Source: Rhodohalobacter barkolensis (GTDB lineage Bacteria; Bacteroidota; Rhodothermia; Balneolales; Balneolaceae). From it: 64,000 nt of DNA. Where the stretch lies: the NCBI RefSeq assembly GCF_002834295.1, contig NZ_PISP01000002.1:62001-126000 (forward strand), read 5' to 3'. Numbering within the stretch: position 1 is the first letter of the stretch; each line of letters begins with the position of its first letter. The notes beneath the pieces were generated by a model. The model had not been told where the DNA came from. It was given only the letters and a program-made list of their open reading frames with translations, and made no database searches. Shown one piece after another: positions 47,667-54,197 of this stretch. The position numbers and the translations under genes were made by a program.

Positions 47667-48215
47667 ATGAGAAGAAGATCAAGAAACAGAACAAAGGAGC
47701 TCTATTTTATTGAAATGAAAGTGGCCGGAGACATTCCGGTTTTCCTGAGAAAATCAACCCTTTCTAAGGTGACAGATGGTTTAAAATGGTGTTGTGAGAA
47801 GAGAGGACTTCGAATTTATGATTACACCATTTTACCGGATCGTTTGATGTTCGTTGCTGAAACAGCCTGGGGATCACTGCAGGATGTTATTGATTCTTTT
47901 CGAGGGTTTTCTTCCAAAGCGATACTAAAGGTATTGCAATCAGAAAGGCACTCAAAGCAAGCCGATTGGATGCTGAAATTGATTGATCGATTTGGAGATA
48001 AGGATCAGGCCGGAAACAGTAATATTTGGGAACTATCTCCCGTGATCGAGAAACTGATCAAACAAGAACAGCATGATAAACACGCTGAGATGATATCCAA
48101 CCGAATGGTTCAATATGGATGGGTTCATAAACCGGAGCATTATAATTTATGCAGCTCCTCACCGCGGCACCCGCTAAATGGTTGGATTGTAGAGGGAATT
48201 GATCCCTGGAGTTAG
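47667..48215 (+). CDS. Y1/REP-associated transposase-like protein lacking catalytic residues
   Basis: A 182-residue protein whose layout follows the REP-associated tyrosine transposases common in Bacteroidetes: a start with YFIEMKVAGDIPVF, a central strand-turn-strand, and a C-terminal block ending PEHYNLCSSSPR. The catalytic residues appear to be lost. Where the family has the HUH histidines (P-N/D-H-x-H), this protein reads ILPDRLMFVAE (residues 55-65; Arg and Met in place of His). Where the family has Tyr-Ile-His-Asn-Asn-Pro before the PEHY block, it reads MISNRMVQYG, so the nucleophile tyrosine is a Met. The open frame is intact and a GGGAAAAGAT stretch lies just before the ATG, so it is probably expressed and kept as a nucleic-acid-binding protein, not a pseudogene. 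It converges with the amidohydrolase gene and overlaps it by four bases. Confidence 0.75.
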   Translation: MRRRSRNRTKELYFIEMKVAGDIPVFLRKSTLSKVTDGLKWCCEKRGLRIYDYTILPDRLMFVAETAWGSLQDVIDSFRGFSSKAILKVLQSERHSKQADWMLKLIDRFGDKDQAGNSNIWELSPVIEKLIKQEQHDKHAEMISNRMVQYGWVHKPEHYNLCSSSPRHPLNGWIVEGIDPWS

Positions 48216-48931
48216 CTGGCTTTCAAGCGCGATAACTCGATAGAATGAGCAATTGCCCGGCCGGTGTCCTTTGGAAATTGATTTTTCCGATTTAAAAATC
48301 GTTGATTGACCTCCAACTCAATTCCCAGATATTGTGTTTCGTTGATCTGAGAACGTAAATAACTGGTCAGTCCGTCATCAACACCTTTGTAGGGTTGATT
48401 ACTCAGGATATTTAAGTGCGGCAGATTTTCTTTTAGAAGTTGTTTTAAACGTTTACAATATTGTTTTTCAAAATCTCGGGTGGGATCATATAGAATGCCA
48501 ATATCACAGTTTCTGGTTTTATTCTTAAATACCGGTGTAAATGTATGGATCCCGATATGCAGGACCGTTTTACCGGATCTGTTTAACTCTCCAATTTTCT
48601 CTTCAACCGACTTTCTGTAAGGAAGATAATAGGATTCGAGGAGTCGTTGTTTATCCAGCTCGGATAGTACCGAACTAAACTCAGAGAACACTCTTCGATG
48701 GCCTTCAGAGCGATTGATTTCAACAAGCAGACGTGAGATGTTAAACTTAAATAGGGGGACTTTTAGATGGTCAGAAACGGTCAAAGCCAAACCTAAAGCT
48801 CCGGGATCCCAGCCCCGGTGGGAACTTAATATGTCAGCAGCCTTCAGAAACAGATGCCGGTATTTTACAGGAATCTGGTTGCCGGCATGCTCACAACTAA
48901 TAATAATTTCAGGGTATAAATGGTTTTCCAT
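48212..48931 (-). CDS. N-formylglutamate amidohydrolase family protein
   Basis: A 239-residue member of the FGase family (HutG-like), zinc-dependent hydrolases releasing acyl groups from glutamate-type amides. Motifs: SCEHAGNQIP (residues 12-21), SHRGWDPGALGL, and FNISRLLVEINRSEGH, with HIGIHTFTP later. The family also occurs outside histidine catabolism, coupled to ATP-grasp and GCS2 ligases; no hut genes are here. Last gene of a four-gene operon, overlapping the GCS2-like gene by 23 bases. It may deformylate or remove an acyl cap from the operon's product, but the substrate is unknown. Confidence 0.88.
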   Translation of the reverse strand: MENHLYPEIIISCEHAGNQIPVKYRHLFLKAADILSSHRGWDPGALGLALTVSDHLKVPLFKFNISRLLVEINRSEGHRRVFSEFSSVLSELDKQRLLESYYLPYRKSVEEKIGELNRSGKTVLHIGIHTFTPVFKNKTRNCDIGILYDPTRDFEKQYCKRLKQLLKENLPHLNILSNQPYKGVDDGLTSYLRSQINETQYLGIELEVNQRFLNRKNQFPKDTGRAIAHSIELSRLKAS

Positions 48932-50162
48932 ACTTCAGGCATTCACATAATCGATGGTAAGTGTTCACTAAATCATTTTTTTGAATGGTTTGTGGCAATG
49001 AGTTTAGAATTCTTCTTGCAAGCGGCCCTTCTTCAAAAATAAGCTCCAAGATTTCCGAGGTTTCGGATGTGTAACTGTTAGGCGTAATGTACTCCCTGAA
49101 AATATGCTCACAAAGGTCACCTGCTGATATAGACGGAGTTGAAAGCCCAAATATGTTGAGATATTTCTGATCGGTAATCACAGCTTTTTCTCCATGCTCT
49201 ATAGTTGATAAAAGTATTGGGTAGAGTTCGTCTTCATGCCAGTTTCTTTGGTGTTCAAGAGGATATAAATCTTCAAAAATGAACATTTTTGTCACAGCAA
49301 CGACCCACTCGAGTATAGCGAGGTCAATAGTAGGACACTCCTGAACATCCATTACCCTCACTTCAATTGAATTTCGATCCCAGCGAGGCATCAATCCACG
49401 GGAGTTTAACCACTCTTCCTGGAGTATTTTATCCGGATCATAGGGGGCAATTTCTCTGTACATTTTATCCAGAACTTCTTTTTGATACTTCTCCTTGCTA
49501 AAAATTGCCTCCGGTATAATAAGCCCCGTAATAGACGGGATTTTGATTGCATTGGTTCGATACATCTCCATTCTGAAATCCAGGAATGGCTTTCGTTCCG
49601 AATCGGCAATAGGTGAACTTGCTGCCATTGCGGGGATAAGAGGCAAGACAAGACGTAAGGCAGCGTGTAATTTTTCAAACTCCTGTTCACCGTAAAAAGG
49701 GAGGTTCAGATGTGTGCTTTGTACATTCGACCAACCGTGGCCTGAGCAGTCAAATATTCGATTATAGGCTTCATAAATCGGGTTATACTCGTGTGGCCAC
49801 AATTCGACACTGCTGAATGGATCCATCCAGGGATGAGCAGCGCCGGGCATCAAGCGTGCATCAAAAGGTTCGAGCAAAGCGTCAATTTGTTCTACATGCC
49901 TTTGAAGCTCAAATCCAACGGTGGACAAGTCTTTAGCGGGTCCGGCAGTTTTTATTTCGATAATGTGCAGAGCCAGTTCATTACTCCAGGCTACACCATC
50001 CAGCACTAATTCATTTACAATTTTGTCTGAAGAATTTCTGAGTACCCGATCAGAAATTGGCATGATATCGAGGCTCTCCCGGTTTACGATGATGTATTCC
50101 AGCTCCACCCCAAATCCTTCAAAAAGATGAAGGGGCTTATTTTTATTGATCAAAAGACTCAT
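48909..50162 (-). CDS. GCS2-type carboxylate-amine ligase
   Basis: A 417-residue member of the glutamate-cysteine ligase family 2 (YbdK/GCS2), glutamine synthetase-like ligases joining an acid side chain to an amine. Seen: GVELEYIIVNRESLDI at residue 18 onwards (first metal-ligand strand), ALHIIEIKTAGPAKDLSTVG, HPWMDPFSSVELWPHEYNPI, STHLNLPFYGEQEF and RWDRNSIEVRVMDVQECPTI. It is a stand-alone gene, not a fusion with an ATP-grasp domain. It starts four bases inside the preceding RimK-like gene (ATGA overlap). Acceptor and donor are unknown; glutathione synthesis is less likely given the partners and the presence of BshA. Confidence 0.88.
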   Translation of the reverse strand: MSLLINKNKPLHLFEGFGVELEYIIVNRESLDIMPISDRVLRNSSDKIVNELVLDGVAWSNELALHIIEIKTAGPAKDLSTVGFELQRHVEQIDALLEPFDARLMPGAAHPWMDPFSSVELWPHEYNPIYEAYNRIFDCSGHGWSNVQSTHLNLPFYGEQEFEKLHAALRLVLPLIPAMAASSPIADSERKPFLDFRMEMYRTNAIKIPSITGLIIPEAIFSKEKYQKEVLDKMYREIAPYDPDKILQEEWLNSRGLMPRWDRNSIEVRVMDVQECPTIDLAILEWVVAVTKMFIFEDLYPLEHQRNWHEDELYPILLSTIEHGEKAVITDQKYLNIFGLSTPSISAGDLCEHIFREYITPNSYTSETSEILELIFEEGPLARRILNSLPQTIQKNDLVNTYHRLCECLKYGKPFIP

Positions 50163-51625
50163 TTTGCTCGAACTCCTTTGTTTTCCTCAATTCGGCGCAA
50201 TATATCTCCGATAATGATGTCGTAGAGCTGTTCCTTCAGTAAAACATCCTCAAAGCCTGAATCAATACTTGGATTGTCGTTAATTTCAATAACAAAAACC
50301 TGGCCGTCTTTCTCTTTTATGTCTACACCGTATAACCCGTTGCCAATCAAAGAGGCGGCTTTCAGTGCAATCTTCAATACGCTTTTCGGAACCTCTTGAA
50401 TGGGAATGGTATCTGAGTTTCCGGCGTGAGTTTTACCATCTCCGGTTCTTTTGTAGATTTGCCAATGTTTTCTGGCCATGTGATATCGACAGGCATAGAT
50501 CGGTTTATTGTTTAGTACTCCGATTCGCCAATCAAAATCGGTCGGAATAAACGACTGAACAATCAGTAGATCAGATCGTTTAAAGAGCTTTTTCGTCAAC
50601 CGATCGTAATTTTCCTGGTCATCCGCTTTAACCACACCCTGCGAAAATGAGCTGTCCGGCTGTTTAAGAATGCACGGAAATCCGAGCTTTTTGGCTGCAG
50701 TTTGGGCATTCTCACTGCTGATGATAAGTGTTTCCGGTGCCGGAATTTGATGTCGAGTCAACAGTTCAGCAAGGTAAACTTTATTGGTGCATTTCAGGAT
50801 CGACTCCGGATCATCAATGACAACCAGGCCTTCGGCCATTGCTCGCCGGGCGAATCTGTATGTGTGGTGGTTTACACCGGTTGTTTCTCTGATAAAAAGT
50901 GCATCAAACTCATTGAGCCGTGAGTAATCTTCACGTGTGATGATTTCGGTGTAAAACCCCATCGACTCAGCGCTTTTCGTAAATCGTTGGATCGCCCTGG
51001 CATCGGATGGAGGAAATTCTTCCTCAGGATTCACTAAAATGGCCAAATCGTAGACATATTGCTTTTTCTCGGCGGTTCTATTCCGTTTTTTGAAATACTC
51101 CTGAGCTACAGCAATTACAAAATCCCGATGCCCTTCAGGGATGTCACTGGTAGAAATCGGATGAATGGTTCGCAGGTTCCACTCCCCATCTTTTTTAAAA
51201 AATTCTGCCCGAAGAAATGGAGCCTGGAATTGATTAAAAAGCCGTGATGCCAATTTATCATATCGTTTGGCAAGATTTTTACCAAAGTAGATGCTCAAGG
51301 TAAACGATTCTGATTGAATGCTTAAGAAACTCTTCTGAATCAACTTCTGCAGCTCTTCGGATACAAACCGTAGAATGGTTTGAGATTTAAAGTCCTGAAT
51401 GGTTAAAATATTGGGTATGGGAGTATGACCCCTGGCAGCTGCCAAAAGTGAAACATAGTAGCCGGTGGACTGGTACCTGTAACTTTTGCATAGATTGTAA
51501 ACTTTTGCACGCCTGAGTTTGCTGTACATCTCATCCATCAGGTACTTTTTTGCGGGCACAACATCTACACCCGGAATATCAAAATCCCAGCTTTTCGGGT
51601 TGTCAACGATGATAAGTTGTTTCAT
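50159..51625 (-). CDS. RimK-like ATP-grasp ligase with N-terminal RLAN domain
   Basis: A 488-residue protein. The N-terminal part (about 1-180; KLRRAKVYNLCKSYRYQSTG, YYVSLLAAARGHTPIPNILT) is the RLAN domain found before some RimK-like enzymes. The ATP-grasp part (about 290-480) has FPCILKQPDSSFSQGVVKAD, the substrate-side arginine DFDWRIGVLNNKPIYACRYH and the metal site VIEINDNPSIDSG. RimK-like enzymes add glutamate to proteins or small molecules. It overlaps the preceding peptidase gene by 23 bases. The RLAN/RimK combination with GCS2 and amidohydrolase genes has been noticed in comparative genomics of amidoligases; I know of no product for it. Confidence 0.88.
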   Translation of the reverse strand: MKQLIIVDNPKSWDFDIPGVDVVPAKKYLMDEMYSKLRRAKVYNLCKSYRYQSTGYYVSLLAAARGHTPIPNILTIQDFKSQTILRFVSEELQKLIQKSFLSIQSESFTLSIYFGKNLAKRYDKLASRLFNQFQAPFLRAEFFKKDGEWNLRTIHPISTSDIPEGHRDFVIAVAQEYFKKRNRTAEKKQYVYDLAILVNPEEEFPPSDARAIQRFTKSAESMGFYTEIITREDYSRLNEFDALFIRETTGVNHHTYRFARRAMAEGLVVIDDPESILKCTNKVYLAELLTRHQIPAPETLIISSENAQTAAKKLGFPCILKQPDSSFSQGVVKADDQENYDRLTKKLFKRSDLLIVQSFIPTDFDWRIGVLNNKPIYACRYHMARKHWQIYKRTGDGKTHAGNSDTIPIQEVPKSVLKIALKAASLIGNGLYGVDIKEKDGQVFVIEINDNPSIDSGFEDVLLKEQLYDIIIGDILRRIEENKGVRAK

Positions 51626-52331
51626 GATCTCTCGGACTCTTTTTCGGTGTGATAATAATCAGGTTGGCATCGTATGTGATAATTCCAAGTAAAATGGCAT
51701 TAATTACCGTGTCAATTTTCATTCTGTAAATCATCCCTTCTCCCAACGGATTGTGGCTAATAGGGTCGGCGATCTGAACTTCCCGTGTTTCAGGATCATA
51801 ACCACTCAATAGGACAAAGTGTCCGGCGGGTTCTCCGCGCAAATCATCATAATCAGAATTAGGTCCATATTCTCTTTTCGATTTATACAGATATGTAGCG
51901 CTTAATCCTGCAATAATTGGGTGGCCATTTTTAAGGTATTTTCTCAGCAGTGCAGGCCTTAGATCTTCAAAATGAAGTTTCCCGCCTAAATTCAGAAAGC
52001 TTACATAGGCCTCGGTCACAGTTGTGAGTTTAGTTTCGTTTTTTATGGATTGTTGTTCATTGAGTTTTACAATGAGACTTTCCTTATCGAGAACAAACCA
52101 CGTTGGATCAAATACCTGAAGGTTGTACGTGTAAATTTTAGCGTTATAGCCTCTCAAAAGAGCATGTACGCCTAATAATGCTCCAACCGTACCCCCCTCT
52201 TCAAATTGCAAAACTTCATCGATAACCGTACTCAGCGTAACCGGATCTTTATAGTATTCGTAGAGAGAGTGCAGCGAAGTTGGCCCGCAGGTGGTTTCGT
52301 CGGGTTGTTTTTTGATGGGAATCTTGATCAT
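51603..52331 (-). CDS. C39-like cysteine peptidase
   Basis: A 242-residue papain-fold protein of the C39-like group, which cut leader peptides or isopeptide-type bonds. The catalytic cysteine lies in PDETTCGPTSLHSL (C15), the histidine in EPAGHFVLLSGYD (H171) and the aspartate in VQIADPISHNP (D189). There is no signal peptide or transporter domain, so unlike ABC-fused C39 peptidases it should act in the cytoplasm. First gene of the operon; the promoter should lie in 52332-52458. A peptidase next to two amide ligases suggests it cleaves or transfers the product those ligases make. Confidence 0.85.
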   Translation of the reverse strand: MIKIPIKKQPDETTCGPTSLHSLYEYYKDPVTLSTVIDEVLQFEEGGTVGALLGVHALLRGYNAKIYTYNLQVFDPTWFVLDKESLIVKLNEQQSIKNETKLTTVTEAYVSFLNLGGKLHFEDLRPALLRKYLKNGHPIIAGLSATYLYKSKREYGPNSDYDDLRGEPAGHFVLLSGYDPETREVQIADPISHNPLGEGMIYRMKIDTVINAILLGIITYDANLIIITPKKSPRDHETTYHR

Positions 52332-52458: not shown

Positions 52459-53004
52459 CTAAACGGTTTTGATAGCTTCAAAAAGAGTATCAAACATTTC
52501 AATATTGTACTGTTTTAGCCATTTTTTGTTCTGATTGGGCTCGTGTCTTGATCGGATAAAAAACGGTTTAATACCGAGCTCCACAGCAGGTTTCAGGTCA
52601 GTAATTTTATCACCTGCCATGAAAGACTGTTTTGGGTCTATTCCGTACTTATTGATCGCTTTAAGAAACATGCCGGTGCCGGGTTTTCGATCGTTAGGAT
52701 CAAAATCATGAGGTTTTTCATCAAACTTGGGGTGATGGGGTGCAACATACCAATCATCAATATGGAGTCCTTTCTTCTCAAGTTGTTGATCTACCCATTT
52801 GTGGAGTTGAATAACATCATCGAGAGAATATCGTCCTCTGGCTATTCCCGATTGATTGGTCACAACGATGATTTTGAACTTGTTTTCATTCATCCATCGA
52901 ATGGCTTTCAGAGCGTCTTTACACCATGTCCACTCTTTGGGCTTATGAACAAAATTGTAATCGACATTCAGTGTGCCGTCCCGATCCAGGAAAAAAGCTT
53001 TCAT
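52459..53004 (-). CDS. GmhB-like HAD phosphatase (heptose bisphosphate phosphatase family) without zinc-loop cysteines
   Basis: A 181-residue HAD-superfamily (HAD-IIIA) phosphatase. The nucleophile motif is D7-R-D9-G-T (FFLDRDGTLNVDYNFVHKP), then VVTNQSGIARGRYS (motif II) and FMAGDKITDLKPA (motif IV). This is the layout of GmhB, which dephosphorylates heptose-1,7-bisphosphate for LPS core. The usual Cys-x-His ... Cys-x-Cys zinc loop reads APHHPKFDEKPHDFDPNDRK instead, keeping one histidine but no cysteine. Related HisB-type phosphatases are also possible. It is separated from the MFS gene by 17 bases and from the amidoligase operon by 127 bases, so it is probably co-transcribed with the transporter. 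Confidence 0.82.
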   Translation of the reverse strand: MKAFFLDRDGTLNVDYNFVHKPKEWTWCKDALKAIRWMNENKFKIIVVTNQSGIARGRYSLDDVIQLHKWVDQQLEKKGLHIDDWYVAPHHPKFDEKPHDFDPNDRKPGTGMFLKAINKYGIDPKQSFMAGDKITDLKPAVELGIKPFFIRSRHEPNQNKKWLKQYNIEMFDTLFEAIKTV

Positions 53005-53021
53005 TTGAGGAAATTTGAACT

Positions 53022-54197
53022 TTAAATGTATTCCGACCGGCCGCTAATCCAGCCTGACCAAAATTTTAAAATGGAAACAATCAGAAGAAACATAAGCGGA
53101 GTGGTCCAGTTGCCTATTAAATCGTGCAATCCACCGAATAGAGCAGGTCCAATTGCGGCAAGTGTATATCCGGCAGATTGTGCCATGCCCGACAGTTCAT
53201 TTGCCGTCTCTGAATCTTTTGTACGAAGAACAATGAAGAGCAAGGCCATTCCAAAGCAGCCTCCAAGGCTAATACCCAGCAATGAGGCCCAGAATTCTGT
53301 GTAGGTTGTATCGGTGATGAAAATCAGGCCCAACAGGCTGATGACTTCTAAACCGACTAAGATGCCAACCGGAAGACGCTGTCTCTGCCGCCTGGATGCC
53401 CATGCAGGCATTAAAAATGTACCTAATACACCCGATCCCTGAACAATGGCGAGCATCAAGCCGGCCCGGGCAGTTTCCATGCCGCGTTCAATTAAAATCT
53501 CAGGGAGCCAGGCTACAATAATGAAAAATGTGAGGGATTGTAAACCCATGAAAAGGGCTACATTCAGGGCAATACCGGAAGTTGTCAGATGTTTTAGAGC
53601 ACTCCTGAAACTTCGATTGGCGATAACCGGTATATTTTTTCTCATTTGTGGGAGCCAAATAAGCAGGGCAATGAACGACATGGCCGCCCAGAAGCCGAGT
53701 GACCATCTCCAGCCAAAGTTCAGCCCTTCGGAGAGTGGAACGCTAATTCCGGATGAAATGGCCGCTCCGGTTCCCAGCATAGCTGAATAGATACCTGTCA
53801 CTAATCCATAGCGATTTGGAAAACTCTTTTTCACAATGCCGGGCAGCAGTACATTGGCTAATGCAATTCCAACTCCCAAAACTGCAGTACCCGCAAAAAG
53901 AGCTGTGTGAGCCGGATAAATCCGGATAAGTAAACCGGCTGTGAGCAGAATTAGAGCCAGGGTCATGGTTCCTTCTGTCCCCATCTTTTTGGTGAAAAAA
54001 GGAGTCAGAATCGAGAAAATGCCAAAAGCCAGTACGGGTAGTGTGGTGAGCATTCCCAAAAGCGTATTGGAAAGACCGGTATCCAGCCGTATTTCATAAA
54101 TTAGCGGACCGACAGCTCCAATAGCCGGTCGCAGATTAAATGCAATAACAGCAATGGCTGTAATCAGTAAAATTTTTCTGTTTTGCTCGGGAGACAT
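53022..54197 (-). CDS. MFS transporter, CynX/NimT family
   Basis: A 391-residue transporter with twelve predicted membrane helices. The start NRKILLITAIAVIAFNLRPA is followed by GPLIYEIRLDTGLSNTLLGM, typical of the CynX/NimT (cyanate/nitroimidazole-type) branch of the major facilitator superfamily. Mid-protein loop at about residues 185-205 (LPQMRKNIPVIANRSFRSAL). Substrate unknown. It is first in a unit with the GmhB-like gene and divergent from pyrR. Confidence 0.87.
   Translation of the reverse strand: MSPEQNRKILLITAIAVIAFNLRPAIGAVGPLIYEIRLDTGLSNTLLGMLTTLPVLAFGIFSILTPFFTKKMGTEGTMTLALILLTAGLLIRIYPAHTALFAGTAVLGVGIALANVLLPGIVKKSFPNRYGLVTGIYSAMLGTGAAISSGISVPLSEGLNFGWRWSLGFWAAMSFIALLIWLPQMRKNIPVIANRSFRSALKHLTTSGIALNVALFMGLQSLTFFIIVAWLPEILIERGMETARAGLMLAIVQGSGVLGTFLMPAWASRRQRQRLPVGILVGLEVISLLGLIFITDTTYTEFWASLLGISLGGCFGMALLFIVLRTKDSETANELSGMAQSAGYTLAAIGPALFGGLHDLIGNWTTPLMFLLIVSILKFWSGWISGRSEYI

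What the first reader, a model, noticed from the sequence alone, without database searches (positions are those of the whole stretch)
48212..52331. Four-gene amidoligase operon: C39-like peptidase, RLAN-RimK ATP-grasp, GCS2 ligase, N-formylglutamate amidohydrolase
Seen: four minus-strand genes joined by overlaps of 23, 4 and 23 bases, so they are almost certainly translated as one unit. Known: RimK-like ATP-grasp and GCS2 enzymes make amide bonds with glutamate or similar acids, FGase-type enzymes hydrolyse acyl-glutamates, and comparative genomics of amidoligases has linked such families. Inference: the operon makes, and then cuts or uncaps, a small peptide-like conjugate or a glutamylated protein tail. 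I know of no characterised product for this exact set. The peptidase has Cys/His/Asp in place but no export domain, so processing should be cytoplasmic. BshA in the same window makes a glutathione role less likely.
Basis: partly seen in the sequence, partly recalled or inferred. Interest (0 to 1): 0.82.

Follow-up and report, generated by a model that had tools for sequence, protein, structure and literature searches.

The report
Widespread four-gene peptide-ligase operon
This is a real, tightly packed set of four genes (two enzymes that join amino acids and two that cut such bonds) kept together in the same order across about a dozen bacterial phyla, so it probably makes and recycles a small capped peptide that nobody has yet identified.

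Summary
In detail: four minus-strand genes (C39-like cysteine peptidase, RLAN-RimK ATP-grasp ligase, GCS2 ligase, FGase-type amidohydrolase) overlap by 23, 4 and 23 bases. Of 78 readable loci found by GCS2 alone, 77 have RLAN-RimK and 72 C39; every exception is at a contig edge. 56 have all four genes in the same order, across about 12 phyla. No fifth gene and no precursor peptide is conserved. Catalytic residues are invariant. New here: in a branch nested inside these ligases, C39 and GCS2 are gone and a GNAT acetyltransferase domain is fused to RLAN-RimK; long RLAN frames and GCS2 never coexist (0 of 17), suggesting interchangeable amine caps. The RLAN model resembles a lid-less ATP-grasp core, without sequence support. 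The genome has a separate canonical RimK, no other GCS2, no GshB, and BshA/BshC, so S6 tailing or glutathione synthesis is unlikely. Best reading: a capped small peptide is made (GCS2 cap, ATP-grasp extension), then trimmed or recycled by C39 and FGase. The product is unknown. Iyer 2009 predicted such amidoligase operons and may already describe this one; it was not readable here.

The parts
51603..52331 (-). C39-like papain-fold cysteine peptidase or transferase, 242 aa, first gene, no signal peptide visible
   Evidence: PF13529 1e-12; Gln9, Cys15, His171, Asp189 invariant in 46 homologues; AF2 model pLDDT 90.7; nearest folds PeiR isopeptidase, C39 of PCAT1, phytochelatin synthase Alr0975
50159..51625 (-). 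RLAN-RimK ATP-grasp ligase, 488 aa, second gene; RLAN domain about residues 1-185, ATP-grasp about 230-470
   Evidence: PF14401 2.6e-49, PF08443 3e-13; Asp435, Glu447, Asn449 of the expected ATP-grasp metal site invariant in 58 homologues
51047..51625 (-). RLAN domain: model resembles a lid-less, probably inactive ATP-grasp core
   Evidence: AF2 pLDDT 88.8; top PDB matches LysX, Ddl, ArgX, RimK; sequence profile does not support it
48909..50162 (-). GCS2-type carboxylate-amine ligase, 417 aa, third gene; the only GCS2 in the genome
   Evidence: PF04107 4e-19; GxExE, HP, QxxHxN and RxxxExRxxD motifs invariant or nearly so; own-genome search
48212..48931 (-). FGase-type amidohydrolase, 239 aa, fourth gene, the optional member
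   Evidence: PF05013 5e-21; CEH, HxGxD, His125/His129, Glu205/Glu207 invariant in 26 homologues; closest solved structure 2odf

Best explanation
A self-contained cytoplasmic pathway for a small capped peptide built from common amino acids. Proposed steps: (1) GCS2 uses ATP to put a gamma-glutamyl-type cap on the amine of an amino acid X (inferred from the family). (2) RLAN-RimK uses ATP to join the carboxylate of capped X to the amine of a second, probably acidic, amino acid Y, as GshB follows GshA (inferred). (3) The C39-like papain-fold enzyme cuts or transfers the product, and FGase cleaves N-acyl-amino-acid bonds of the kind a RimK-type ligase makes, so the pool turns over (inferred). In other lineages an acetyl cap from GNAT appears to replace the GCS2 cap. 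Shown: the operon, its conservation, intact active sites, mutual exclusion of GCS2 and the long (GNAT-fused) RLAN form. Not shown: any substrate or product.
For: Same four genes, same order, 56 of 78 loci; RLAN in 77 of 78, C39 in 72 of 78, exceptions at contig edges. Genes mostly overlap or abut (longest-start ORF calls overstate overlap somewhat). No fifth gene conserved across phyla and no conserved small ORF, so ordinary metabolites are the likely substrates. Catalytic residues invariant. Long RLAN frames (GNAT-fused where examined) in 17 of 54 RLAN genomes, 0 with GCS2 or C39 (Fisher p = 4e-13, not corrected for relatedness); four such sequences form a fully supported branch inside the GCS2-type tree and two others lie apart, so at least two label changes are forced. 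A GNAT fused to an ATP-grasp ligase is the known design of N-acetylglutaminylglutamine synthetase (from knowledge); the GNAT of L080 matches TIGR03103 at 7e-10. The C39 model is nearest to an isopeptidase, C39 leader peptidases and a glutathione-cleaving enzyme.
Against: No substrate evidence. Papain-fold matches are weak (TM about 0.4-0.5) and would arise for many clan CA peptidases. The GNAT-fused lineage has also lost C39, so 'GNAT replaces GCS2' is not a clean one-for-one swap. A protein encoded elsewhere in the genome could still be the acceptor.
Confidence: 0.45

Rival explanations
1. Reversible protein modification: RLAN-RimK and GCS2 add amino acids to the C-terminus or side chains of a cellular protein and the C39-like peptidase and FGase remove them, as RimK and RimB do on ribosomal protein S6.
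For: RimK-type ATP-grasp fold; ligase and peptidase are paired as in RimK/RimB (PMC12239564).
Against: Canonical RimK is elsewhere in the genome (L162, 375 bits against a cut-off of 331) while the operon protein scores 24; no conserved target gene nearby; two different ligases are kept together.
Confidence: 0.2
2. Glutathione-like thiol pathway: GCS2 makes gamma-glutamylcysteine and RLAN-RimK adds a third residue; the C39-like enzyme acts like phytochelatin synthase.
For: GCS2 plus ATP-grasp is the GshA/GshB logic; nearest folds of C39 include Alr0975 bound to glutathione; this is the only GCS2 of the genome.
Against: BshA and BshC point to bacillithiol; no GshB found; GCS2 is far below every NCBIfam cut-off; no evidence for cysteine as substrate.
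Confidence: 0.12
3. The operon makes a capped-dipeptide compatible solute, like N-acetylglutaminylglutamine amide.
For: GNAT-ATP-grasp variants resemble the NAGGN synthetase design; several hosts come from soda-lake or marine sites (record titles).
Against: Also present in groundwater, fen and soil lineages; the RLAN protein is not a TIGR03103 member among the families listed.
Confidence: 0.13
4. A graspetide or other ribosomal peptide pathway: ATP-grasp modifies a precursor and C39 cuts its leader.
For: ATP-grasp plus C39 can occur in such clusters (knowledge).
Against: No room between genes and no small ORF conserved upstream or downstream across groups; no transporter conserved.
Confidence: 0.03

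Closest known systems
RLAN-domain ATP-grasp systems with GNAT-C39 (DUF3335), linked to Iyer et al. 2009 (10.1039/b917682a)
   Same: RLAN-RimK ligase with a C39-like papain-fold partner; PMC10318531 cites that paper for GNAT-fused DUF3335
   Different: Here the C39 protein is separate and shows no DUF3335 match at E 0.01 or better, GNAT is absent, and GCS2 and FGase are added. Whether the 2009 paper lists this four-gene form could not be checked
Glutathione synthesis GshA/GshB
   Same: GCS-type ligase followed by an ATP-grasp ligase
   Different: GCS2 is a distinct subfamily, the ATP-grasp is RimK-like with an RLAN domain, two hydrolases are in the operon
RimK/RimB ribosomal S6 glutamylation
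   Same: RimK-type ligase paired with a peptidase
   Different: Peptidase is papain-fold, not retropepsin-like; second ligase present; separate canonical RimK in the genome
N-acetylglutaminylglutamine amide pathway
   Same: GNAT fused to an ATP-grasp ligase, as in the GNAT-RLAN variant
   Different: RLAN protein not a TIGR03103 member among listed families; no further gene recurs nearby across phyla

Membership tests
RLAN (PF14401) ATP-grasp proteins | RLAN domain N-terminal to a RimK-like ATP-grasp | tested here: met
   167 bits against a cut-off of 25, plus RimK 50 bits
GCS2 (PF04107) | profile match and metal/ATP motifs | tested here: met
   69 bits against 21; motifs invariant
YbdK / glutamate-cysteine ligase equivalogs | NCBIfam curated cut-off | tested here: not met
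   best 41 bits against 176
RimK S6-glutamate ligase | NF007764 cut-off 331 bits | tested here: not met
   24 bits; canonical RimK elsewhere scores 375
HutG N-formylglutamate amidohydrolase | FGase Pfam domain and an NCBIfam equivalog | tested here: inconclusive
   PF05013 met, no NCBIfam family at E 0.01; substrate untested
Graspetide (RiPP) cluster | precursor peptide gene | tested here: not met
   no conserved short ORF within about 450 bases either side
Glutathione biosynthesis | GshB partner; glutathione made | tested here: not met
   best GSH-S_ATP match in the genome is RimK; metabolite not testable here
N-acetylglutaminylglutamine synthetase (TIGR03103) | match to the equivalog model | tested here: not met
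   not among the 25 best families of the RLAN protein
Phytochelatin synthase (C83) | sequence family PF05023 | tested here: not met
   no such Pfam match at E 0.01; only fold-level likeness

The most novel reading that the evidence does not exclude
A previously uncharacterised, horizontally spread metabolic module that makes a capped peptide with an unknown role in many phyla, in which the amine cap is interchangeable (gamma-glutamyl by GCS2 or acetyl by GNAT) and the ligase carries a dead, lid-less ATP-grasp copy (RLAN).
Probability: 0.3. Interest if true: 0.8.

Novelty: new variant of a known kind. Interest (0 to 1): 0.6.

Why it matters
Because the module is self-contained and only four genes long, the product could be found by expressing it in E. 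coli K-12 and looking for a new metabolite. The GNAT/GCS2 swap gives a direct, testable prediction about the product's cap.

Tried and rejected
Ribosomal peptide precursor: no conserved short ORF. A fifth conserved gene that names the substrate: none across phyla. Riboswitch or other RNA clue: none at gathering threshold in eight loci, nor a credible one in the window. RLAN as a sequence-level duplicate of the ATP-grasp half: HHalign probability 2%. Prior description: Iyer 2009 not held; no open-licence paper found naming RLAN with ATP-grasp or the four-gene set. Promoter and terminator scan: little above shuffles, not used. GCS2 solved-structure search: only a non-significant YbdK match.

Full report
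Observation. The four genes are present exactly as described, on the minus strand at 48212-52331, with overlaps of 23, 4 and 23 bases. Pfam assigns Peptidase_C39_2, RLAN plus RimK, GCS2 and FGase, each above its gathering score. None of the four meets a curated NCBIfam cut-off, so no curated function is assigned.

Linkage in the class. In 196 genomes of the same class, homologues were found in 54 (RLAN), 37 (GCS2), 34 (C39) and 24 (FGase) genomes. All 34 C39 genomes have GCS2, and 36 of 37 GCS2 genomes have RLAN; the 37th, G200, has GCS2 at a contig start. Fisher tests give p of 1e-24 (RLAN-GCS2) and 6e-35 (GCS2-C39), not corrected for shared ancestry. FGase is the looser member: 19 of 37 GCS2 genomes have it, and five other genomes have it alone.

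Linkage across phyla. A scan of species-representative genomes with a GCS2 alignment only gave at least 569 relatives and 80 stored loci, down to 44% identity. In the 78 loci where the GCS2 frame could be read, RLAN was present in 77, C39 in 72 and FGase in 59; 56 held all four in one order. All six loci without C39, and the one without RLAN, are at contig edges. Record titles place them in Balneolota, Bacteroidota, Thermodesulfobacteriota, Myxococcota, Planctomycetota, Verrucomicrobiota, Hydrogenedentota, Pseudomonadota, Acidobacteriota, Krumholzibacteriota, Eiseniibacteriota and Ignavibacteriota. Many are metagenome-assembled genomes, so single assignments may be wrong. The kept loci are the best matches, so more distant relatives may differ. 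The search used GCS2 alone, so the neighbours are not a selection effect. Gene pairs usually overlap or abut; ORFs were called from the longest start, which overstates overlap somewhat.

Boundaries. No further gene recurs across phyla within eight genes either side, and no conserved short ORF lies next to the operon. Four planctomycete or verrucomicrobial loci (L097, L142, L149, L156) have a related GNAT-containing gene nearby; the two copies scanned by profile, in L097 and L142, are GNAT plus carbon-nitrogen hydrolase.

Active sites. C39: Gln9, Cys15, His171 and Asp189 are invariant in 46 sequences. RLAN-RimK: Asp435, Glu447 and Asn449 are invariant in 58. GCS2: E20, E22, H110, H151, R263, E267 and D272 are invariant in 52. 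FGase: H15, H38, H125, H129, E205 and E207 are invariant in 26. All four look like working enzymes. Catalytic roles are assigned from knowledge of the families.

Structure. The C39 model (pLDDT 90.7) is nearest to the pseudomurein endoisopeptidase PeiR, C39 domains of PCAT1 and the primitive phytochelatin synthase Alr0975, at TM about 0.4-0.5: papain fold, specificity open. The RLAN domain alone (pLDDT 88.8) matches LysX, D-Ala ligase, ArgX and RimK as its best solved folds (E 6.5e-5, TM about 0.5), aligned over about 255 columns against its own 193 residues, as expected for a core that lacks the lid. RLAN-RimK may thus be a tandem of a dead and a live ATP-grasp unit. A profile comparison of the two halves gives no support (2%), so this remains a fold-level suggestion.

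The GNAT variant. Seventeen of the 54 RLAN genomes have open frames of 630 aa or more. Three of these proteins (L066, L074, L077) were scanned by profile and carry an N-terminal GNAT domain; the rest are taken as fusions from frame length, and one of them, G141 (L075), does not obviously show a GNAT sequence at its N-terminus. None of the 17 genomes has GCS2 or C39 of this type. In the RLAN tree a fully supported group of four fusions sits inside the GCS2-type sequences and two lie outside, so at least two label changes are forced by well-supported branches (quick tree, midpoint root). L080 shows a third layout: GNAT-C39 (DUF3335) beside separate RLAN and ATP-grasp genes. The simplest reading is that GNAT and GCS2 do the same job, capping an amine, by acetyl or by gamma-glutamyl.

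Mechanism. GCS2 enzymes of known function activate the side-chain carboxylate of glutamate, RimK-type enzymes join a carboxylate to the amine of glutamate or similar acids, and FGase cuts N-acyl-glutamate (family knowledge). Chemically FGase is the reverse of a RimK-type ligase. The most coherent assembly is a capped peptide, made by the two ligases and trimmed or recycled by the two hydrolases. All substrates are inferred.

Rivals. S6-type tailing is unlikely because a canonical RimK is encoded elsewhere (375 bits against 331). Glutathione synthesis is unlikely: no GshB was found, and BshA and BshC are present, although this is the only GCS2 of the genome. A ribosomal peptide pathway lacks a precursor. 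A compatible solute remains possible.

Novelty. From memory, RLAN, its GNAT and C39 partners and the idea of amidoligase/peptidase operons go back to Iyer et al. 2009; PMC10318531 cites it for GNAT-fused DUF3335. That paper was not readable here, and it may already list this gene set. No open-licence paper found describes it or its product, and RLAN is absent from the 14 well-known control genomes. I rate it a new variant of a known kind; the quantified spread, the GNAT/GCS2 exclusion and the RLAN fold suggestion come from this work.

Noticed in passing
window 51047-51625 (RLAN domain): The RLAN domain models as a lid-less ATP-grasp-like core; sequence profiles do not confirm it.
   Followed up: partly
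L097:9241-10899; L142:10096-11568; L149 and L156 upstream of C39: A related GNAT-containing gene lies next to or near the operon in planctomycete and verrucomicrobial loci; the copies in L097 and L142 are GNAT plus carbon-nitrogen hydrolase.
   Followed up: partly
L065, L066, L069, L074, L077, L078: GNAT-RLAN-RimK single proteins without C39 or GCS2; inside one genus code (g23) one genome has the fusion and others the C39-RLAN-GCS2 form.
   Followed up: partly
window 47667-48215, + strand: A 182 aa ORF resembling REP-associated transposases (from reading, no NCBIfam match) runs convergent to the FGase gene and overlaps its end by 4 bases; similar-sized ORFs sit at this place in close relatives.
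   Followed up: no
window 52459-54197, - strand: A GmhB-like HAD phosphatase and a CynX-type MFS transporter lie upstream; genes of the same sizes occupy this place in a few close relatives, but no such gene recurs across phyla.
   Followed up: partly
L163:498-1523 and 1684-2742: Two adjacent ATP-grasp-like proteins of about 350 aa in the own genome, with weak GSH-S_ATP matches, not related to this operon.
   Followed up: no
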